Origin: Candidatus Zambryskibacteria bacterium RIFOXYD1_FULL_40_13
GTDB lineage: Bacteria; Patescibacteriota; Minisyncoccia; Phycocordibacterales; DATDWN01
Reading direction: 5' to 3'
Assembly (NCBI GenBank): GCA_001824295.1
Contig: MHWY01000003.1
Coordinates: forward strand, 1 to 59,065
Length of the DNA: 59,065 nucleotides
The notes below the pieces were generated by a model. The model worked only from the letters and a program-made list of their open reading frames with translations. It ran no database searches and was not told the origin of the DNA. The stretch's first letter is position 1. Every line of letters starts with the position of its first letter. This document shows, in pieces, positions 4,022-54,324 of the stretch. A program made the position numbers and the translations under genes.

Positions 4022-4094
4022 GCGCGATTAGCTCAGTTGGTAGAGCGACTCATTGACGTTGAGTAGGCCACAGGTTCGAGTCCTGTATCGCGCA
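4022..4094 (+). tRNA. tRNA-Val(GAC)
   Basis: Acceptor GCGCGAT/ATCGCGC, anticodon stem ACTCA/TGAGT with loop TTGACGT (anticodon GAC), T-arm GGTTCGAGTCC. No CCA is encoded. Its 3' end (TCCTGTATCGCGCA, from 4081) recurs exactly at 4217 and 4381, at the ends of two stacked elements. Confidence 0.95.
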
Positions 4095-4230
4095 CAAAGA
4101 CGAAGTCTTGTGCCAGGACTCGAACAGATTAGCGGTTTACGCTTGCACCAGCAAGTGTCGCTAATCTGCGTTTTTGATTTTGGTTTTTGACGAAAAATCA
4201 AAATCGAAAAAGAGACTCCTGTATCGCGCA
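4095..4230 (+). repeat. tRNA-3'-end element, family A (tRNA-Val copy)
   Basis: Noncoding, about 136 bp. In order: a stem-loop built on the tRNA 3' end (GCACAAAGAC-GAA-GTCTTGTGC), an inverted T-arm copy (CAGGACTCGAAC, 4114-4125), hairpin 1 (4126-4167, outer stem AGATTAGCG/CGCTAATCT, inner stem ACGCTTGC/GCAAGTGT, loop ACCA), a T5 run, hairpin 2 (4171-4211) capped by GACG, and a direct copy of the tRNA 3' end (TCCTGTATCGCGCA, 4217-4230). The same order with compensatory changes occurs after Leu-TAG, Leu-TAA and Gln tRNAs. No ORF. Function unknown. Confidence 0.85.
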
Positions 4231-4394
4231 CAATAAAGCCACCGTAAGGTGGATTTTTTGTGCGTTATAAGTAAAGTCATGTCATGACTTTACGTCAGGA
4301 TTCGAAAACCCTTGATAGTTTTTTGTGAGTCTACGAAACAAAAAACAGAAAAGGTGTACTGACCATGTAATGGTCGAGACTCCTGTATCGCGCA
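4231..4394 (+). repeat. tRNA-3'-end element, family B (tRNA-Val copy, stacked on family A)
   Basis: Follows the second copy of the tRNA-Val 3' end. It has a hairpin (GCCACC-GTAA-GGTGG), a lateral hairpin (GTAAAGTCAT-GTC-ATGACTTTAC), an inverted T-arm copy (CAGGATTCGAA), a stem GTTTTTTGT/ACAAAAAAC with a GAG...CGAA loop, the string AAAAGGTGTACTGACCATG with hairpin GACCAT-GTA-ATGGTC, and a third copy of the tRNA 3' end (4381-4394). The last block is nearly identical to the one after tRNA-Lys. Confidence 0.82.
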
Positions 4395-4444
4395 CCCTAA
4401 TCTAACATTGGAAAAAACACAGAAGAAGATAAATAGGTACCAAT

Positions 4445-8372: not shown

Positions 8373-8759
8373 TTAGATGCCAAATTGTTTTTGAAATTTG
8401 GCCTCCAATCTATCCATTCTACTACCATGTCGCATTCCTTTCAAATGCATTAAACCGTGGATAAACAAGAAAGCCACAAAGTTTGTCGGTTTTCTGTCAA
8501 ACCGTGGAGACTCTTTTTTCGCAAGTGATAGGTTAATGAAAATTTCTCCAGTCGTCTTGTCCAGCGGGAAACTTAAAATATTAGTAGGTTTATTTTTTCC
8601 TCGGTATGAATTGTTGAGCTCCTGGGATTTTTTGTTTCCCACAAAAACAAGCGAAAGACTATATTTTTTACCCAACACCACGTCCTTCATTAGAGCAAAA
8701 GACACGCTGGGGAGCGTGTTTTTTGTTTTGTTTGTTATTGTAAAGTTGTTATCTGTCAT
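8373..8759 (-). CDS. ybeY: Endoribonuclease YbeY (rRNA maturation)
   Basis: Metal-dependent RNase acting in 16S rRNA 3' maturation and ribosome quality control. The metal-binding signature appears as HGLMHLKGMRH (three His spaced as in the family), preceded by the conserved LSFPLD strand. At 128 aa it is slightly short. It lies downstream of rpsU on the same strand, separated by a palindromic element. Confidence 0.92.
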   Translation of the reverse strand: MTDNNFTITNKTKNTLPSVSFALMKDVVLGKKYSLSLVFVGNKKSQELNNSYRGKNKPTNILSFPLDKTTGEIFINLSLAKKESPRFDRKPTNFVAFLFIHGLMHLKGMRHGSRMDRLEAKFQKQFGI

Positions 8760-8769
8760 TTACTTTGTT

Positions 8770-8892
8770 AATAACACGCAAATATGGATGCAGTTCAAGG
8801 AGTCAGCGAGTATTGCGACCAAGCTGTATAGAGATACTGCGCGAGAGAAACGGAGCCAGCGACAAAGAAATGCGCCAGATTTGCGTGTTATT
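8770..8892. repeat. MITE-like palindromic element between rpsU and ybeY
   Basis: 14-bp terminal inverted repeats (AATAACACGCAAAT at 8770-8783; its complement at 8879-8892) bound a GC-richer, partly self-complementary core of about 95 bp with no ORF. The right arm overlaps the rpsU stop codon. Confidence 0.7.
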
Positions 8893-9133
8893 TTCTGCCT
8901 CCTTTTGTGTACTCTGACATCTTACCCAACTTAATAAGCTCCGCCACCTCTTCTCGTCTCCTGAGAACTTTCAGTGTTTTCTTTTGTTTGACGTAAGGGG
9001 ATAGCTTACGAGCAGAATAGCGAATACTTCGTACACGAGATAAGACCCCAGAGCCCTGGACCTTTTTTGTGAATCTTCTAATAAGATTTACATTGTTTTC
9101 GTTGCCTGTTTTTATTACTTCTGCATTTATCAT
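8888..9133 (-). CDS. rpsU: 30S ribosomal protein bS21
   Basis: Small basic ribosomal protein next to the anti-SD end of 16S rRNA. The MINAEVIKTGNENN start and the Arg-rich body (FTKKVQGSGVLSRVRSIRYSARK) match bS21, with a somewhat long C-terminus. I prefer the ATG at 9133 (81 aa) over an upstream GTG at 9151, because the family starts just before the first beta strand. It follows the hisS-like gene on the same strand. Confidence 0.88.
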   Translation of the reverse strand: MINAEVIKTGNENNVNLIRRFTKKVQGSGVLSRVRSIRYSARKLSPYVKQKKTLKVLRRREEVAELIKLGKMSEYTKGGRK

Positions 9134-17991: not shown

Positions 17992-18639
17992 TTATATGTC
18001 AAGGGGCATCCTTGACATACTCGTTTCTTTTAAATAATTTTCTGTCTCACCGACCAGTGAGTTTTTATCTCCAAATATTCCTAGCAGTAAATCTGTAGTG
18101 ACTATTTGTAGACCTCTTTCTTCACTGTAGTCTTTAAAACTACTCCACTTATATTGGCCCGGGTGTTTTACTAGTCCATCTTTTACTGGGTTCATGTGTA
18201 TGTATGCCGAGGCCCACATTAGTTGTGCGTCATCTTCTATTTGCACGGCCTTAAACTGATCTTGAAAGACATGGCCCACCCTTTTGTGTTTTTTGTTTAC
18301 AAACATGGCGTAACTCGTGCAAACCTTTGATAACATTTTTGAAATTGATGTGTTGTTTGTTTGTTCAACTAGTAGATGAAAATGGTTTGGCATTAGGCAA
18401 AAAGCATGAAGTTTGTAGTCACTTTTATTTGTATCCGTAATTCTTATTCTTGAGTAGGGAAGTGAAAGTAAATTATCTTTCTGAATTTCTTTTTCATCAA
18501 ATCCAAGACTTAGGCCAAGTCTAAAAAGAAACGCTCGATAATCTTGCTCGTCAAAGAATATTTTTTCTTTATTGTTTCCACGGTTGTAAATATGAACTAT
18601 TGTGCCGGGACCAAATTCCTTGAAGTCTCTATTTTTCAT
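17992..18639 (-). CDS. REP-associated tyrosine transposase (RAYT, Y1 family)
   Basis: HUH single-strand transposase, 215 aa. The N-terminus VHIYNRGNNKEKIFFDEQDY, the HUH motif PNHFHLLVEQ and a candidate nucleophile Tyr in SYAMFVNKKHKRVGHVFQ are present, followed by the family-typical YIHMNPVKDGLV. The last codons (…MSRMPLDI) are encoded by the left terminal hairpin. The gene looks intact. It may mobilise the hairpins at its ends and perhaps the GTCAACC palindromes elsewhere in the window. Confidence 0.93.
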   Translation of the reverse strand: MKNRDFKEFGPGTIVHIYNRGNNKEKIFFDEQDYRAFLFRLGLSLGFDEKEIQKDNLLSLPYSRIRITDTNKSDYKLHAFCLMPNHFHLLVEQTNNTSISKMLSKVCTSYAMFVNKKHKRVGHVFQDQFKAVQIEDDAQLMWASAYIHMNPVKDGLVKHPGQYKWSSFKDYSEERGLQIVTTDLLLGIFGDKNSLVGETENYLKETSMSRMPLDI

Positions 18640-19747: not shown

Positions 19748-21031
19748 ATGAGTACTTTTAAAATAATCGTTACAACTGTTTTCGTGGGCTCTTTCGTTAT
19801 TGGAATTATTCTTTTTGCCATGTCCAAGAGCACTCCATCTGCTGGTTCTGCCGATTTGGTGGTTTGGGGGACTGTTCCAAGAGAGGTATTTGATATTGCC
19901 TACAAGAACTCTTCTCTCAAAGCTAACAAGGCCATCAGGATTACTTATGTTGAGAAGGATGCACTAACCTTTGATACTGACTTCGTTGGAGCCCTATCAG
20001 AAGGTATTGGTCCGGATATTGTTATATTGCGAGATGACTATATGTATAAGAACCGCAACAAGTTGTTTGTCATACCATATTCGTACTACACACAGAGGGG
20101 TTTCAAGGATACCTTTATTGAAGCAGGAGAGATGTTTCTTGATCCAAACGGGGTCGTGGCTCTGCCATTTATGATAGACCCATTGGTTATGTATTGGAAT
20201 AGAGATATATTTTCAAGCAATAGTATTTCCGAACCGCCTAAGAACTGGGACCAGATATATGGCCTTATTGAGAAAGTCACTCGTCGTGACGCCAATGCCA
20301 ATGTTCTCCAGAGTACTATTGCTTTGGGTGAGTGGCGCAATATAACAAATGCAAAGGAGATATTAACCATGCTCTTACTTCAGGCTGGAACTCCAATAAC
20401 TACCAGAACCTCAAGTGGGGTCGTCTCTGTTCTGAAATCTCAGTTTGATTACCCAATTGCTCCTTCCCAGAGTGCAATAAGTTTTTACACTCAATTTTCA
20501 AATCCAACCTCACCTTCATACACTTGGAACCGTTCTCTGCCCGAGTCGTTCAACATGTTTCTTTCTGGGGGGCTTGCAACATATATTGGTTTTGCAAGTG
20601 AGCTGTTTTCTATCCAAGAAAAAAACCCAAACCTAAACTTTGATGTCACAGCTGTTCCACAAGTCAGAGATTCAGCAAAAAAGGTGGTCTTTGGGAGAAT
20701 GTATGCTCTAGCCATAGTCAAACAGACAAAGCAGGTTGGTGGGGCCTTTGTTGCTGTTAATGGTTTAACGGAGCCCACATCTATTAAGTCGCTTGAGGCT
20801 GTAACAAACCTTCCTCCTGTCAGAAGAGATTTGTTTTTGGAAAAACCAACTGACGCATACAGGATAGTTTTTTATGACTCTGCACTTGTTTCTCGTTCCT
20901 GGATTGATCCGAACGGAGCTGGAAGTGAAAAAGTCTTCCGTGATATGATAGATATGATTACGAGTGGACGAGGGAAGATAAGCGAGGCATTGAGTTTGGC
21001 GGATACAGAGCTTAGTAATTTGTTAAAATAA
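19748..21031 (+). CDS. Extracellular solute-binding protein, family 1-like
   Basis: 427 aa. One N-terminal hydrophobic segment (about 4-26), without an obvious lipobox Cys, anchors or exports the protein. The rest has the periplasmic-binding fold pattern of ABC sugar-binding proteins (DLVVWGT near the start; DIVILRDD; FMIDPLVMYWNRDIF; PKNWDQIYGLIEKV). No permease or ATPase genes are adjacent. Instead it heads a run of pilin-like genes, so a role with that surface apparatus is possible. Confidence 0.85.
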   Translation: MSTFKIIVTTVFVGSFVIGIILFAMSKSTPSAGSADLVVWGTVPREVFDIAYKNSSLKANKAIRITYVEKDALTFDTDFVGALSEGIGPDIVILRDDYMYKNRNKLFVIPYSYYTQRGFKDTFIEAGEMFLDPNGVVALPFMIDPLVMYWNRDIFSSNSISEPPKNWDQIYGLIEKVTRRDANANVLQSTIALGEWRNITNAKEILTMLLLQAGTPITTRTSSGVVSVLKSQFDYPIAPSQSAISFYTQFSNPTSPSYTWNRSLPESFNMFLSGGLATYIGFASELFSIQEKNPNLNFDVTAVPQVRDSAKKVVFGRMYALAIVKQTKQVGGAFVAVNGLTEPTSIKSLEAVTNLPPVRRDLFLEKPTDAYRIVFYDSALVSRSWIDPNGAGSEKVFRDMIDMITSGRGKISEALSLADTELSNLLK

Positions 21032-21046
21032 ATTTTTATGTTAACC

Positions 21047-21478
21047 ATGAATATTAAAAGGTTTGGTGGGATGACACTTTTGGCTTTTACTCTCCTTTTT
21101 ATTTTTTTACCTACTCTTGTTTTTTCAGCTGAAAGCCCAGATTCTGCGAATGACAAGACCGGCATTACATATGAGTGTGCAACAGAGGTGAACGGTGTTA
21201 TGGTTTATGGCGAATGTACTTTTCAGGATCTAATAGCGGCAGTTAAAAAGGTTGTTGATATAGCAGTAAAGCTCGCCTTGTCGCTTTCTGTGATTGCTAT
21301 AACATATGCAGGTTTTCTTTATATGAAATCTGGCGATAATCCAGGTGATAGAAAGAGAGCAAACAAAATGCTCTTAAATGTCGTGAAGGGAATAGTCTTT
21401 ATCCTCGCAGCCTGGCTAATCGTATCATTAATAGCTAACGCGCTTTTGAGACCTGGTGTTGTGCAGTTTGGTATGTAA
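21047..21478 (+). CDS. TrbC/VirB2-like small membrane protein 1
   Basis: About 143 aa. A cleavable signal sequence ends near FSAES, then a short Cys-containing segment (YECATEVNGVMVYGEC) and two hydrophobic helices separated by the charged loop MKSGDNPGDRKRANKML. This two-helix plan is that of VirB2/TrbC pilins and of CPR pilin-like proteins. Start ATG 21047 (an in-frame ATG lies at 21038). It overlaps nothing and is followed within 5 nt by the next member. Confidence 0.8.
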   Translation: MNIKRFGGMTLLAFTLLFIFLPTLVFSAESPDSANDKTGITYECATEVNGVMVYGECTFQDLIAAVKKVVDIAVKLALSLSVIAITYAGFLYMKSGDNPGDRKRANKMLLNVVKGIVFILAAWLIVSLIANALLRPGVVQFGM

Positions 21479-21482
21479 AACT

Positions 21483-21893
21483 ATGAAAACATTTAAACAA
21501 ATTTCAATACACCTTTTTATTCTAAGTTTTATTGTTCTTCCTGTTTTTGTCTATGCAGGACCAACCCCACCTGCCCCAACCCCTTCGGCTCCTACAACAA
21601 TCAAAATAGGGATTCAAAATCCATTTAACTGTGGGGGTCAGCCAGATTGTACTATCATGACCCTGATTGTGGCCATACTTGAAAAAATAGTTATGCCTAT
21701 TGCAGCGGTTGGGGTGGTCATGTGGATAGTCTATGCTGGATTTACATTTGTCACCGCCCAGGGTGTTCCAAAGAAGATAGAAGAAGCAAAACAGCGCCTT
21801 CTGTGGTCCCTCGTTGGTGCAGGCATATTACTAGGCGCAGTTGCAATATCAAAGGTGGTAGAGAGCACGGTGGGGGCCTTAATAGCACCATAA
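21483..21893 (+). CDS. TrbC/VirB2-like small membrane protein 2
   Basis: 136 aa from ATG 21483 (MKTFKQISIHLFI); the upstream in-frame ATG at 21456 would overlap the previous gene. Signal sequence, Pro/Thr-rich spacer, NPFNCGGQPDC segment, then two helices around the charged loop TAQGVPKKIEEAKQRLLW. Same architecture as its neighbours. Confidence 0.8.
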   Translation: MKTFKQISIHLFILSFIVLPVFVYAGPTPPAPTPSAPTTIKIGIQNPFNCGGQPDCTIMTLIVAILEKIVMPIAAVGVVMWIVYAGFTFVTAQGVPKKIEEAKQRLLWSLVGAGILLGAVAISKVVESTVGALIAP

Positions 21894-21899
21894 ACAAAC

Positions 21900-22265
21900 A
21901 TGAACAGAATACAAAAAATTTTTTCATTCGGTTTAATCTCTCTCGTTCCACAGATGGTCTTTAGTTTCGATTTGGCTAGTAGTAACTTCAAAGGAGTTTT
22001 AGAGGAGGTGGGTAGCGTAATAAGTATTCTAATTCCAATATTGTCTGGTATCGCCCTAATCTATTTCTTTTGGGGTTTGTCAAAGTTTATCCTCAATTCA
22101 AGTAAACCAGAGGATATCAAAAAGGGTAGAGAGTACATGCTTTGGGGGATATTGGTGCTATTTATTTTATTTACATTCCAAACAATTATTGGGTTAGTAT
22201 CAAATGAGCTGGAGATAGGAGGTAAAACCCCAGCTATTCCTGCGTTAAAAACAAATATACAATAA
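21900..22265 (+). CDS. TrbC/VirB2-like small membrane protein 3
   Basis: 121 aa. N-terminal signal-like helix, then helix IPILSGIALIYFFWGLSKFI, charged loop NSSKPEDIKKGREYM and helix LWGILVLFILFTFQTI. The YFFWG...KFI...G(R/K)...WGI wording is shared with members 4 and 5, so these are paralogues. Confidence 0.8.
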   Translation: MNRIQKIFSFGLISLVPQMVFSFDLASSNFKGVLEEVGSVISILIPILSGIALIYFFWGLSKFILNSSKPEDIKKGREYMLWGILVLFILFTFQTIIGLVSNELEIGGKTPAIPALKTNIQ

Positions 22266-25890: not shown

Positions 25891-26072
25891 TGTGGGTAAG
25901 GAGGGGTACTCTTTTTTAATAATAAAATGTCGTCACATTTTATTATTAAAAACCCAGATTCACGACACTCGCTGGTGCGAGCGTAAACCGTGAATCTGTT
26001 CGAGCCCCTCACGCAAAGCTTCGCTTTGCTCTTACCCACAAATCAAAAAACCGCTTTCGCGGTTTAGATTTG
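25891..26072 (-). repeat. tRNA-3'-end element, family A (tRNA-Leu(TAG) copy)
   Basis: Read on the minus strand: acceptor 3' strand and its inverted copy (CTTACCCACAAATC / GATTTGTGGGTAAG), a lateral hairpin (GCAAAG-CGAAG-CTTTGC), inverted T-arm (25998-26010), hairpin 1 (25956-25997, AGATTCACG/CGTGAATCT and ACGCTCGC/GCGAGTGT, loop ACCA), T5, hairpin 2 (about 25913-25952) capped by GACG, and a direct copy of the tRNA 3' end (25891-25905). Both hairpin-1 stems differ from the Val copy by paired, compensatory changes. Confidence 0.85.
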
Positions 26073-26154
26073 TGGGTAAGGAGGGACTCGAACCCTCAAG
26101 CCTTACGGCACTAGTTCCTAAGACTAGCGTGTCTACCAATTGCACCACTTACCC
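26073..26154 (-). tRNA. tRNA-Leu(TAG)
   Basis: Acceptor GGGTAAG/CTTACCC, anticodon loop CTTAGGA (TAG), long variable arm typical of Leu. No CCA is encoded. A family A element follows its 3' end. Confidence 0.94.
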
Positions 26155-26168
26155 AAAAAATACGAAAT

Positions 26169-26316
26169 CAGTAGGGAATCGACCATTACATGGTCAGTAC
26201 ACCTTTTTGTTATTTGTTTCGCTTTGCTCACAAATAACTATCAAAGGTTTTCGATCCCTAACGCAGACTATAACATAGTCTGCTCTGGGCGTAAAAAAAT
26301 CGTAACCGATTTTTTG
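26169..26316 (-). repeat. tRNA-3'-end element, family B (tRNA-Lys copy)
   Basis: On the minus strand after tRNA-Lys: inverted acceptor copy, lateral hairpin (GCAGACTAT...ATAGTCTGC), inverted T-arm (TAGGGATCGAA), stem GTTATTTGT/ACAAATAAC with a GAG...CGAA loop, AAAAAGGTGTACTGACCATG with hairpin GACCAT-GTA-ATGGTC, then a partial direct copy of the tRNA 3' end (CCCTACTG). It ends 14 nt before tRNA-Leu(TAG). Confidence 0.82.
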
Positions 26317-26389
26317 TGCGCCCAGTAGGGATCGAACCTACGACCTTATCCTTAAGAGGGATCTGCTCTACCAGCTGAGCTATGGGCGC
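26317..26389 (-). tRNA. tRNA-Lys(CTT)
   Basis: Acceptor GCGCCCA/TGGGCGC, anticodon loop CTCTTAA (CTT), T-loop GTTCGAT. No CCA is encoded. Carries a family B element. Confidence 0.93.
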
Positions 26390-27109: not shown

Positions 27110-27288
27110 TGGTGCCCGAGGTGGGAATCTTCCGCAACTAAAAATTTTTCGTCAAAAATTTTTGTCGTGTCCGCAGCTCGCGACCCGCGCTGTTGCACGG
27201 GTACCCCGCTTCGCTTTTCGATTCCCAACATAAAGCAATAACATTGCTTTATTCCTCGGACACACAAAACTACCGCATGGTAGTTTTT
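27110..27288 (-). repeat. tRNA-3'-end element, family A (tRNA-Leu(TAA) copy)
   Basis: On the minus strand after an encoded CCA: stem ACTACC-ATGC-GGTAGT, inverted acceptor copy, lateral hairpin (AATAAAGCAAT...ATTGCTTTAT), inverted T-arm (TTGGGAATCGAA), hairpin 1 (27175-27215, inner stem ACCCGTGC/GCGCGGGT, loop AACA), hairpin 2 (27138-27166) capped by GACG, and an exact 20-bp direct copy of the tRNA 3' end including CCA (27110-27129 vs 27289-27308). Most diverged family A member, yet the inner stem is fully paired. Confidence 0.8.
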
Positions 27289-27375
27289 TGGTGCCCGAGG
27301 TGGGAATCGAACCCACATGACCTTGCGGTCACAAAATTTTAAGTCTTGCGTGTATACCAATTCCACCACTCGGGC
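27289..27375 (-). tRNA. tRNA-Leu(TAA)
   Basis: Acceptor GCCCGAG/CTCGGGC, anticodon loop CTTAAAA (TAA), long variable arm, and an encoded CCA (27289-27291), unlike most tRNAs here. Confidence 0.94.
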
Positions 27376-54002: not shown

Positions 54003-54063
54003 TGGGAGATCGCCCGTCTCGACTCGGCCAAGCTCGCGAGCCGAGGTGGATCTAACGGTAGGG
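54003..54063 (+). pseudogene. Partial 5' copy of tRNA-Gln split by a hairpin insert
   Basis: TGGGAGATCG (54003-54012) and TCTAACGGTAGG (54051-54062) are the first 22 bases of tRNA-Gln (54081-54102), separated by a 38-bp insert containing CTCGGC...GCCGAG. The remainder of the tRNA is absent. Confidence 0.8.
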
Positions 54064-54080
54064 TATTTGAAAATAAATTT

Positions 54081-54151
54081 TGGGAGATCGTCTAACGGTA
54101 GGACAGAGGCCTTTGAAGCCTTTAATTGGGGTTCGATTCCCTGTCTCCCAG
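54081..54151 (+). tRNA. tRNA-Gln(TTG)
   Basis: Acceptor TGGGAGA/TCTCCCA with discriminator G, anticodon loop CTTTGAA (TTG), T-loop GTTCGAT. No CCA is encoded. It is flanked by a partial 5' copy upstream and a family A element downstream. Confidence 0.94.
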
Positions 54152-54324
54152 CAAAGCAGAGCGAAGCGAAAGCTTTGCTGGGAGAAGCAAATTGAAAATT
54201 TGCGTCAGGGAATCGAACGGATTCGCGGTCTACTGACCGAGTACGGTCTGTCGCGAATCCGCGTTTTCACTTTTGATAAGTGTCGACGAATCAAAAGTGA
54301 AAAAGATTACCCCTGTCTCCCAGC
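54152..54324 (+). repeat. tRNA-3'-end element, family A (tRNA-Gln copy)
   Basis: Order: inverted acceptor copy (TCTCCCAGCAAAGC / GCTTTGCTGGGAGA), lateral hairpin (GCAAATT-GA-AAATTTGC), inverted T-arm (CAGGGAATCGAAC, 54206-54218), hairpin 1 (54219-54260, GGATTCGCG/CGCGAATCC, inner ACTGACCG/CGGTCTGT), T4, hairpin 2 (54264-54303) with GACGA in its loop, and a direct copy of the tRNA 3' end (CCCTGTCTCCCAGC, 54311-54324). Outer stem again covaries relative to the other copies. Confidence 0.85.

What the first reader, a model, noticed from the sequence alone, without database searches (positions are those of the whole stretch)
4095..4230. Conserved noncoding element (family A) on tRNA 3' ends, with compensatory stem changes
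Four copies (4095-4230, 25891-26072, 27110-27288, 54152-54324) share one order: stem-loop on the tRNA 3' end, inverted T-arm copy, hairpin 1 (outer 9-bp stem, a GTTT-like bulge, inner 8-bp stem with a 4-nt loop), T-run, hairpin 2 capped by GACG, and a direct copy of the tRNA 3' end. Hairpin 1 stems change in pairs: AGATTAGCG/CGCTAATCT, AGATTCACG/CGTGAATCT and GGATTCGCG/CGCGAATCC outside; GCTTGC/GCAAGT, GCTCGC/GCGAGT and CCGTGC/GCGCGG inside. That is selection on structure across unrelated tRNA hosts (Val, Leu, Leu, Gln). I know of no description of such an element.
Basis: partly seen in the sequence, partly recalled or inferred. Interest (0 to 1): 0.95.

Follow-up and report, generated by a model that had tools for sequence, protein, structure and literature searches.

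The report
Integron-like folding sites behind tRNA genes
Behind many transfer-RNA genes in an order of tiny Parcubacteria-type bacteria lie short inverted-repeat DNA sites that carry reversed and repeated copies of the end of the tRNA gene beside them and come in rows with or without genes between them; they are predicted to fold as single DNA strands and likely act as landing and exchange points for mobile gene cassettes, by an enzyme not yet known.

Summary
The element is real. Covariance models match 19 (A), 90 (B) and 115 (C) of 148 genomes of the order. Of 185 mapped sites, 124 lie within 150 nt downstream of a same-strand tRNA; none within 150 nt of an opposite-strand one. Each typical site has an inverted T-arm copy (T') that fits its own tRNA, a two-hairpin core, and a direct copy of the tRNA end. 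Paired changes abound, but in the hairpin-1 stems G·T and A·C mispairs are about equally rare, whereas tRNA stems of the same genome keep G·U and no A·C: selection on DNA folding rather than RNA. Sites stand in arrays whose units, empty or with genes, end in a tRNA-end copy; at one orthologous tRNA the core is swapped just after T'. This works like an integron attC or folded phage attP site with a tRNA as landing site, but is not a member: no integron integrase was found, and 15 of 19 family-A genomes have exactly one tyrosine recombinase (that of the window genome, the only one scanned by family, is Xer-like). Mobility is inferred; the enzyme is unknown.

The parts
4022..4095 (+). tRNA-Val (GAC); its T-arm/acceptor 3' strand is the left copy of the repeat
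4096..4113 (+). short hairpin (AAAGAC-GAA-GTCTT) joined to the inverted acceptor end, between tRNA-Val and the inverted T-arm
4113..4222 (+). family A site (model span): inverted T-arm T' 4114-4125, hairpin 1 4125-4168 with GTTT bulge, hairpin 2 4171-4210 with GACG loop, direct T part
4212..4231 (+). direct copy of the tRNA-Val 3' end closing unit 1
4295..4388 (+). family B site of the tandem second unit behind tRNA-Val; its left part (4232-4294) holds a terminator-like hairpin, inverted acceptor and hairpin 0
4376..4395 (+). second direct copy of the tRNA-Val 3' end closing unit 2
26072..26154 (-). tRNA-Leu (TAG)
25901..26010 (-). family A site behind tRNA-Leu(TAG); left part 26011-26071 holds a terminator-like hairpin with inverted acceptor and hairpin 0
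25892..25909 (-). direct copy of the tRNA-Leu(TAG) 3' end
26316..26389 (-). tRNA-Lys (CTT)
26168..26261 (-). family B site behind tRNA-Lys; at the corresponding tRNA-Lys of three relatives the core is of another family, while the left part is kept in two of the three
27289..27375 (-). tRNA-Leu (TAA)
27118..27228 (-). family C site behind tRNA-Leu(TAA); closes with a 16/16 direct copy of the tRNA end
54081..54152 (+). tRNA-Gln (TTG)
54144..54185 (+). acceptor 3' strand of tRNA-Gln, hairpin, inverted acceptor (TCTCCCAGC ... GCTGGGAGA)
54186..54205 (+). hairpin 0 (AGCAAATTGAAAATTTGCGT), set between inverted acceptor and inverted T-arm
54206..54315 (+). family A site behind tRNA-Gln; the direct copy of the tRNA end runs on to 54324

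Best explanation
These are inverted-repeat DNA sites of about 94-112 nt placed behind tRNA genes across an order of Parcubacteria-type bacteria, predicted to fold as single strands and likely to work as integron-like exchange sites, where the T-arm of the tRNA would serve as the landing site for units that carry genes or none. SHOWN: a typical site reads inverted T-arm (T', fitting the host tRNA), two hairpins, then a direct copy of the T-arm and acceptor end. Units of this kind stand in tandem behind one tRNA, closed by copies of that tRNA's end; some units carry one to at least four ORFs, others none. Cores of different families stand at the same tRNA of a shared tRNA cluster, and in three of the four genomes compared the similarity breaks just after T'. 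Stem changes mostly keep Watson-Crick pairs. INFERRED: T' pairs with the direct T copy to give a forked hairpin, as integron attC sites and the folded attP of phage CTX do. A recombinase joins it to the T-arm of a tRNA gene, and the incoming unit supplies a fresh tRNA 3' end and, in about half of the tRNA-proximal units of the window genome, a terminator, so the tRNA survives. The old 3' end is left as the displaced direct copy. UNKNOWN: the enzyme. In 15 of 19 genomes with family A exactly one tyrosine recombinase was found; that of the window genome is Xer-like. Xer is therefore the first candidate, but genomes without sites have such a gene too.
For: DNA-level folding. On 62 aligned A sites the hairpin-1 outer stem has 533 Watson-Crick, 4 G·T and 6 A·C cells of 587, and the inner stem without one mostly-G·T pair has 419, 6 and 2 of 434. 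tRNA acceptor stems of the same genome have 220, 18 and 0 of 238. Family B has 1,642, 56 and 33 of 1,779; family C has 1,345, 21 and 9 of 1,444.

tRNA link. 124 of 185 distinct sites with at least 300 nt upstream have a same-strand tRNA within 150 nt (median 57), 26 more within 1 kb, none an opposite-strand tRNA within 150 nt; random positions 117 of 3,700 (part of these loci were chosen for dense hits, and weak matches down to E 0.01 are included). For family A alone 42 of 62 lie within 100 nt.

Host matching. T' matches its own tRNA at 10/11 or better in 95 of 124 sites against 224 of 2,271 for other isoacceptors; the direct acceptor copy at 9/10 or better in 69 of 124 against 4 of 2,271.

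Arrays. L320: tRNA-Leu, B, C, four ORFs + B, one ORF + B, with end copies matching 16/16, 16/16, 14/16, 16/16 at +141, +315, +3446, +4890. Also L103, L087, L101, L113, L097, L038, L116 (second unit by reading) and L086 (three sites in a row without good end copies).

Core swap. At tRNA-Lys the left parts of G000, G008 and G010 are 70-87% identical, the cores 21-43%.

Cassette spread. Two adjacent genes of the tRNA-Asn unit in G000 recur at 77% nucleotide identity over 1,808 nt in a genome of another family, again ahead of a site (weak C match, 21.7 bits, E 0.0088), with a direct copy that reads like a tRNA-Glu end. One case.

Enzyme. One PF00589 match in G000 and in 14 of the 18 other family-A genomes.
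Against: No recombinase was tied to the sites. The 29 PF00589 loci (about 1.5 kb each side) carry no family-A match (B and C were not run there, and the G000 locus was not included). 13 genomes without any A, B or C match also have PF00589 matches, one of them (G045) only weak partial ones, so Xer presence does not track the sites. No excised circle and no filled/empty pair with identical flanks was seen; mobility rests on comparison of species. Many sites carry no gene, so cassette traffic may be a side effect. In 47 of 124 sites the direct T copy matches its own tRNA at fewer than 7 of 8 positions. The DNA reading is cleanest for hairpin 1: hairpin 2 of A has 919 Watson-Crick, 40 G·T, 19 A·C and 132 other cells of 1,110, the T'/T stem 453, 23, 21 and 53 of 550, and G·T exceeds A·C in B and C, though both are rare. 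One inner pair of hairpin 1 is G·T (or T·G) in 38 of 62 sites, which an RNA reading would also allow. The alignments used for pair counts were fitted to the structure. 35 of 185 sites have no same-strand tRNA within 1 kb upstream in the sequence held. At the tRNA-Lys of the fourth genome (G004) both left part and core are diverged.
Confidence: 0.6

Rival explanations
1. Miniature tRNA-targeting elements recombined as ordinary double-stranded DNA. The units are non-autonomous satellites inserted at the T-arm by an integrase of a passing island or phage; the hairpins are arm-binding sites, not a folded strand.
For: Tyrosine integrases of genomic islands split tRNA genes and leave a displaced fragment (start of the abstract of PMC4383910, seen in the listing), as here. 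Some genomes of the order hold extra integrases, one directly beside a tRNA-Ala.
Against: The inverted T-arm inside each unit and the conservation of two long stems are not needed for double-stranded sites. 15 of 19 family-A genomes show no second tyrosine recombinase. The integrase loci carry no family-A site.
Confidence: 0.2
2. A structured RNA in the tRNA 3' trailer that controls maturation or decay of the tRNA; T' would pair with the T-arm in the transcript.
For: Same-strand position behind tRNAs and strong covariation. T' can pair with the tRNA end in the predicted fold.
Against: In hairpin 1 G·T and A·C mispairs are about equally rare while the tRNA control keeps G·U and no A·C. About half of the tRNA-proximal units of the window genome (6 of 11 by my reading) have a terminator-like hairpin with a T run before the core. 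Sites also close units with genes, kilobases from the tRNA. No Rfam family reaches its gathering score over the sites.
Confidence: 0.08
3. REP/RAYT or IS200/IS605-type hairpin elements moved by a Y1 transposase as single strands.
For: Short hairpin elements with a conserved tetranucleotide bulge; Y1 proteins occur in 92 of 148 genomes, two in the window's genome.
Against: Family-A genomes G001 (55% complete), G003, G011, G015 and G026 have no Y1 match. REP elements are not tied to tRNA ends and carry no host-matched arms or direct copies (recalled).
Confidence: 0.05
4. No dedicated recombinase: palindromes at tRNA ends arise and spread by replication slippage, template switching and homologous recombination.
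For: Inverted and direct repeats of the same tRNA end and tandem near-identical units are typical products of slippage (sequence reading).
Against: Slippage does not explain shared cores at 19 tRNA types in many families, paired changes that keep 10- to 18-bp stems, or core replacement just after T'.
Confidence: 0.07

Closest known systems
Integron attC sites and gene cassettes (IntI)
   Same: Folded-strand recombination site with complementary ends, little sequence but strong structure conservation, extrahelical bases, units with genes each closed by a site, growth at one landing site (attC features from passages of PMC4792948).
   Different: Landing site is a tRNA T-arm, not attI; arms match the tRNA beside them; two side hairpins in place of one; no integron integrase in the window's genome; many landing sites per genome.
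Folded attP(+) of phage CTX, integrated by host XerC/XerD
   Same: Two inverted att sequences separated by 90 bp pair within one strand and are used by the host's own Xer enzymes (passages of PMC4246890).
   Different: No phage genes seen at the sites, target is the tRNA T-arm and not dif, and use by Xer is only a guess here.
tRNA-integrated genomic islands and tyrosine integrases
   Same: Target is the tRNA gene, the unit restores it, and a displaced copy marks the far end (start of the abstract of PMC4383910).
   Different: Units are often under 200 nt, no integrase was found in them, and they hold an inverted copy of the target.
REP/BIME elements with RAYT
   Same: Short repeated hairpins with a conserved tetranucleotide next to a stem (recalled).
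   Different: No dependence on Y1 proteins, tRNA-bound, tandem units closed by tRNA-end copies.

Membership tests
Integron | integron-type tyrosine integrase (TIGR02249 above cut-off) in the genome | tested here: not met
   The only PF00589 match in G000 scores 139.7 bits against a cut-off of 265 for TIGR02249; it looks XerD/XerC-like, below those equivalog cut-offs too, and passes only NF040815, recomb_XerA_Arch, 225.8 against 220 (a model whose title also names integron integrase). The enzymes of relatives were not scanned with these models.
Integron | attC-type site: complementary ends, folded as one strand, structure conserved more than sequence | tested here: met
   (folding is predicted, not observed)
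Integron | array of gene cassettes each ended by a site | tested here: met
   L320, L103, L087, L038; many units carry no gene
Integron | crossover triplet AAC/GTT in the outer boxes | not tested
   GAAC follows T' in three A copies of the window, but the crossover position is unknown
tRNA-targeted integrative element | displaced copy of the tRNA 3' end at the far border | tested here: met
   not in every site
tRNA-targeted integrative element | own integrase gene | tested here: not met
   Many units are under 200 nt; no recombinase domain among the 20 ORFs from or beside units that were scanned with Pfam
REP/RAYT | cognate Y1 transposase in the genome | tested here: not met
   absent from five family-A genomes, present in others including G000
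Known RNA family (Rfam 15) | match at the gathering score | tested here: not met
CTX-type Xer-exploiting element | recombination by host Xer at the folded site | not testable with these tools
   needs an assay; PF00589 genes occur with and without sites

The most novel reading that the evidence does not exclude
A whole order of Patescibacteria runs an integrase-free integron: every tRNA gene is a landing site, the universal T-loop motif is the exchange point, folded single-stranded cassettes (perhaps taken up as DNA) are joined by the cell's own Xer recombinase, and each insertion rebuilds the tRNA with a new 3' end and terminator.
Probability: 0.3. Interest if true: 0.95.

Novelty: categorically new. 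Interest (0 to 1): 0.86.

Why it matters
Patescibacteria have small genomes, and how they gain genes is poorly known (recalled). An order-wide set of exchange sites at tRNA genes would give them a gene-capture system spread over the genome rather than at one platform. It would also be a case of single-stranded site recombination without a dedicated integrase, bearing on how integron integrases and their folded sites arose together, which PMC4792948 discusses as a chicken-and-egg problem (passage seen). Several sites lie near contig ends (coordinates against contig lengths), so arrays may break assemblies and their cargo may be under-counted (inference). The three models built here make the set searchable.

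Tried and rejected
Rfam: no match at gathering over the sites; weak matches only to miRNA, RNAI and Phe-leader models, all below gathering. Phage and plasmid records: no match at E 1e-5 with the Val A site. Viral contigs: 0 with an A pattern; the pattern matches only the closest A copies (26 of 125 loci), so this does not exclude B, C or diverged A. Genome contigs with the same pattern: 3 stretches in two named genomes, Parcubacteria bacterium C7867-006 and UBA910.

Y1 transposase as the enzyme: rejected for lack of co-occurrence. Dedicated tyrosine integrase: no second PF00589 match in most family-A genomes. An insertion in Xer that looked IntI-like was compared by eye across relatives and is of variable length in genomes with and without sites, so it was dropped. 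An integrase beside tRNA-Ala in G002 looks like an ordinary island; no A match lies there. First regular expressions for A and B sites returned nothing and were widened. Negative control: 50 kb of E. coli with 6 tRNAs gave 0, 0 and one R3 match at 13.4 bits, E 0.16.

From PMC4792948 and PMC4246890 I read passages; of PMC4383910 only the start of the abstract.

Full report
WHAT IS THERE. The window is contig C3 of a 0.73-Mb genome (96% complete by the tool's estimate). Relatives matched by a family-A pattern are named Parcubacteria bacterium C7867-006 and UBA910. Read 5' to 3', a full unit is: tRNA T-arm and acceptor; a hairpin, in about half of the tRNA-proximal units of this genome terminator-like with a T run (6 of 11 by my reading), whose foot pairs acceptor with inverted acceptor; hairpin 0 (AGC...GCGT); inverted T-arm T'; a core of two hairpins; a direct copy of T-arm and acceptor (sequence reading). 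Not every unit has every part.

Three core families were modelled: A (hairpin 1 with a GTYT bulge inside CG...CG/AC...GT, hairpin 2 with a GACG-like loop), B (TGATA/AGAA internal loop, GTGTAC, small TGTAA hairpin) and C (GGA/GA internal loop, then a hairpin like that of A). The C model also finds A sites at 24-56 bits, so A and C are relatives. At least one more core type stands behind two tRNAs on C5 and was not modelled.

MORE THAN CHANCE. Fold z-scores of the six window sites run from -3.2 to -10.8; only for Leu-TAA did one of 200 shuffles fold as well. Covariation beats all 500 shuffles and every slid control in A, B and C on the covariation score. In the own genome 9 of 33 tRNAs have both an inverted and a direct copy of their own end, against 6 of 1,066 cross pairs.

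SPREAD. Models R1 (A), R2 (B) and R3 (C) match 19, 90 and 115 of 148 genomes of the order, the own one included, at E 0.001 per genome; by comparing the R2 and R3 lists, 123 of 148 have at least one. E-values are rough by the tool's statement. E. coli control: no match at or below E 0.01 in 50 kb.

LINK TO tRNA. For family A, 42 of 62 local matches of at least 28.6 bits (three weaker ones dropped) lie within 100 nt of a same-strand tRNA end, 7 at 155-591 nt, 4 at 1.1-4.4 kb, 9 with none in the sequence held, three of which are less than 300 nt from the start of the sequence. Over all families, weak matches to E 0.01 included, there are 199 distinct sites, 185 with at least 300 nt upstream (14 dropped): 124 within 150 nt, 26 at 150-1,000 nt, 35 further or none; opposite strand within 150 nt 0; 19 tRNA types; random positions 117 of 3,700. 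The 20 regions were picked mainly for dense hits, so the array fraction is not a genome average.

HOST MATCHING. T' fits its own tRNA better than other isoacceptors (95 of 124 at 10/11 or better, against 224 of 2,271). The direct T part fits at 7/8 or better in 77 of 124 against 77 of 2,271, the direct acceptor copy at 9/10 in 69 of 124 against 4 of 2,271, the inverted acceptor at 9/10 in 22 of 124 against 5 of 2,271. The inverted acceptor is often absent or short, so it is not a fixed part.

DNA, NOT RNA. An RNA stem tolerates G-U but not A-C on its own strand; a DNA stem tolerates neither. Hairpin 1 of 62 A sites: outer 533 Watson-Crick, 4 G·T, 6 A·C of 587; inner without one pair 419, 6, 2 of 434. 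That one inner pair is G·T or T·G in 38 of 62 sites, a frequent mismatch on one strand. The T'/T stem has 453, 23, 21 of 550 and hairpin 2 919, 40, 19 of 1,110, with 53 and 132 other mispairs. tRNA acceptor stems of the same genome: 220, 18, 0 of 238 (the register was chosen to favour standard pairs). B: 1,642, 56, 33 of 1,779; C: 1,345, 21, 9 of 1,444. So the paired changes are best read as selection on a DNA hairpin or cruciform; the case is clearest for hairpin 1.

UNITS AND CARGO. Tandem units closed by copies of the tRNA end: Val in the window (+119, +283), L113, L097, L101 (four copies, two units nearly identical); in L116 the first unit has a 16/16 end copy and the second is by reading; L086 has three sites in a row without good end copies. 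Units with genes: L320 (four ORFs, then one), L103 (ArsP permease, thioredoxin-like and ArsR-like genes; then an FkbM methyltransferase), L038 (ORFs of 516 aa, 304 aa DUF4238, 309 aa with weak TPR matches, 134 aa), L125, L087. Of 20 ORFs from or beside units scanned, 7 have a Pfam match above its cut-off. In L320 the last B site lacks its left half. The DUF4238/TPR-like pair of L038 lies in a tRNA-Asn array in G000; 77% identical DNA over 1,808 nt lies in G110, of another family, followed by a weak C match (21.7 bits) and a direct copy that reads like a tRNA-Glu end; no tRNA was found in the 14.4 kb held there. One case only.

TURNOVER. The tRNA cluster Cys-Leu-Lys-Leu is shared by G000, G004, G008 and G010 (order read). 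First Leu: sites in G000 and G004, none in G008 and G010. Leu after Lys: sites in G000 and G010, none in G008 and G004. Lys: core B in G000, A in G008, C in G010 and G004. At Lys the left parts of G000, G008 and G010 are 70-87% identical and the cores 21-43%; G004 is diverged on both sides (46-51% and 17-38%). The Glu-Val pair has no site in G003 and G011 and two units in G000.

ENZYME. Tyrosine recombinases (PF00589): one in G000. Of the 18 other family-A genomes, 14 have one match, one (86% complete) none, three have three. The 13 genomes that I picked as free of A, B and C matches have PF00589 matches too, one of them only weak partial ones. That of G000 is Xer-like and well below the integron-integrase cut-off. 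Y1 transposases are missing from five family-A genomes. The enzyme is open; serine recombinases and others were not searched.

READING. The site behaves on paper like an attC site whose outer arms are copied from the tRNA next to it. T' can pair with the tRNA's own T-arm or with the direct copy on its right; each pairing encloses hairpins. I think an integrated unit renews the tRNA 3' end, in many cases with a terminator, and leaves the old end behind. The core swap at T' suggests that T' itself is also an exchange point. Recombination, strand use and Xer involvement are inferred.

LITERATURE. Eight searches of the open library listed no paper on such sites; the lists were capped, and subscription papers and preprints are mostly not held.

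Noticed in passing
L038:8360-8997 (G000:C7): tRNA-Asn gene split by a group I intron (RF00028, 81.5 bits at 8683-8949); the inserted stretch also holds a 112-aa ORF that looks like an HNH endonuclease (by eye, not scanned); a site array follows this tRNA.
   Followed up: partly
window 54003-54070: Just upstream of tRNA-Gln lies what looks like a truncated tRNA-Gln 5' half interrupted by a GC-rich palindrome of about 37 nt (CTCGACTCGGCC...GCGAGCCGAG); a similar insertion sits in a Gln-like tRNA copy at L049 (G000:C5).
   Followed up: no
L049 and L047 (G000:C5:34700-35500, 20900-22000): A further core type (GGGTCGGGAAACGG...GGAAGGCAGTGAGCGAAG) behind two tRNAs; the second looks like it has a family-B-like core nested inside it.
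   Followed up: no
window 17992-18639: Y1 (REP-associated type) transposase gene, PF01797 match at 18193-18429.
   Followed up: no
L103:2449-4066: Cassette-like unit behind tRNA-Asn with ArsR-like regulator, thioredoxin-like protein and ArsP permease.
   Followed up: partly
L327:3300-3560 (G026): A gene followed by a free-standing tRNA 3' half (GGGTTCGATCCCTACCGG...GCCA), then a terminator-like hairpin and a B site, with no full tRNA found upstream in the stretch held.
   Followed up: no
L116:4850-4931: A B core in the opposite orientation directly after a C site (27.2 bits), which could be an inversion product.
   Followed up: no
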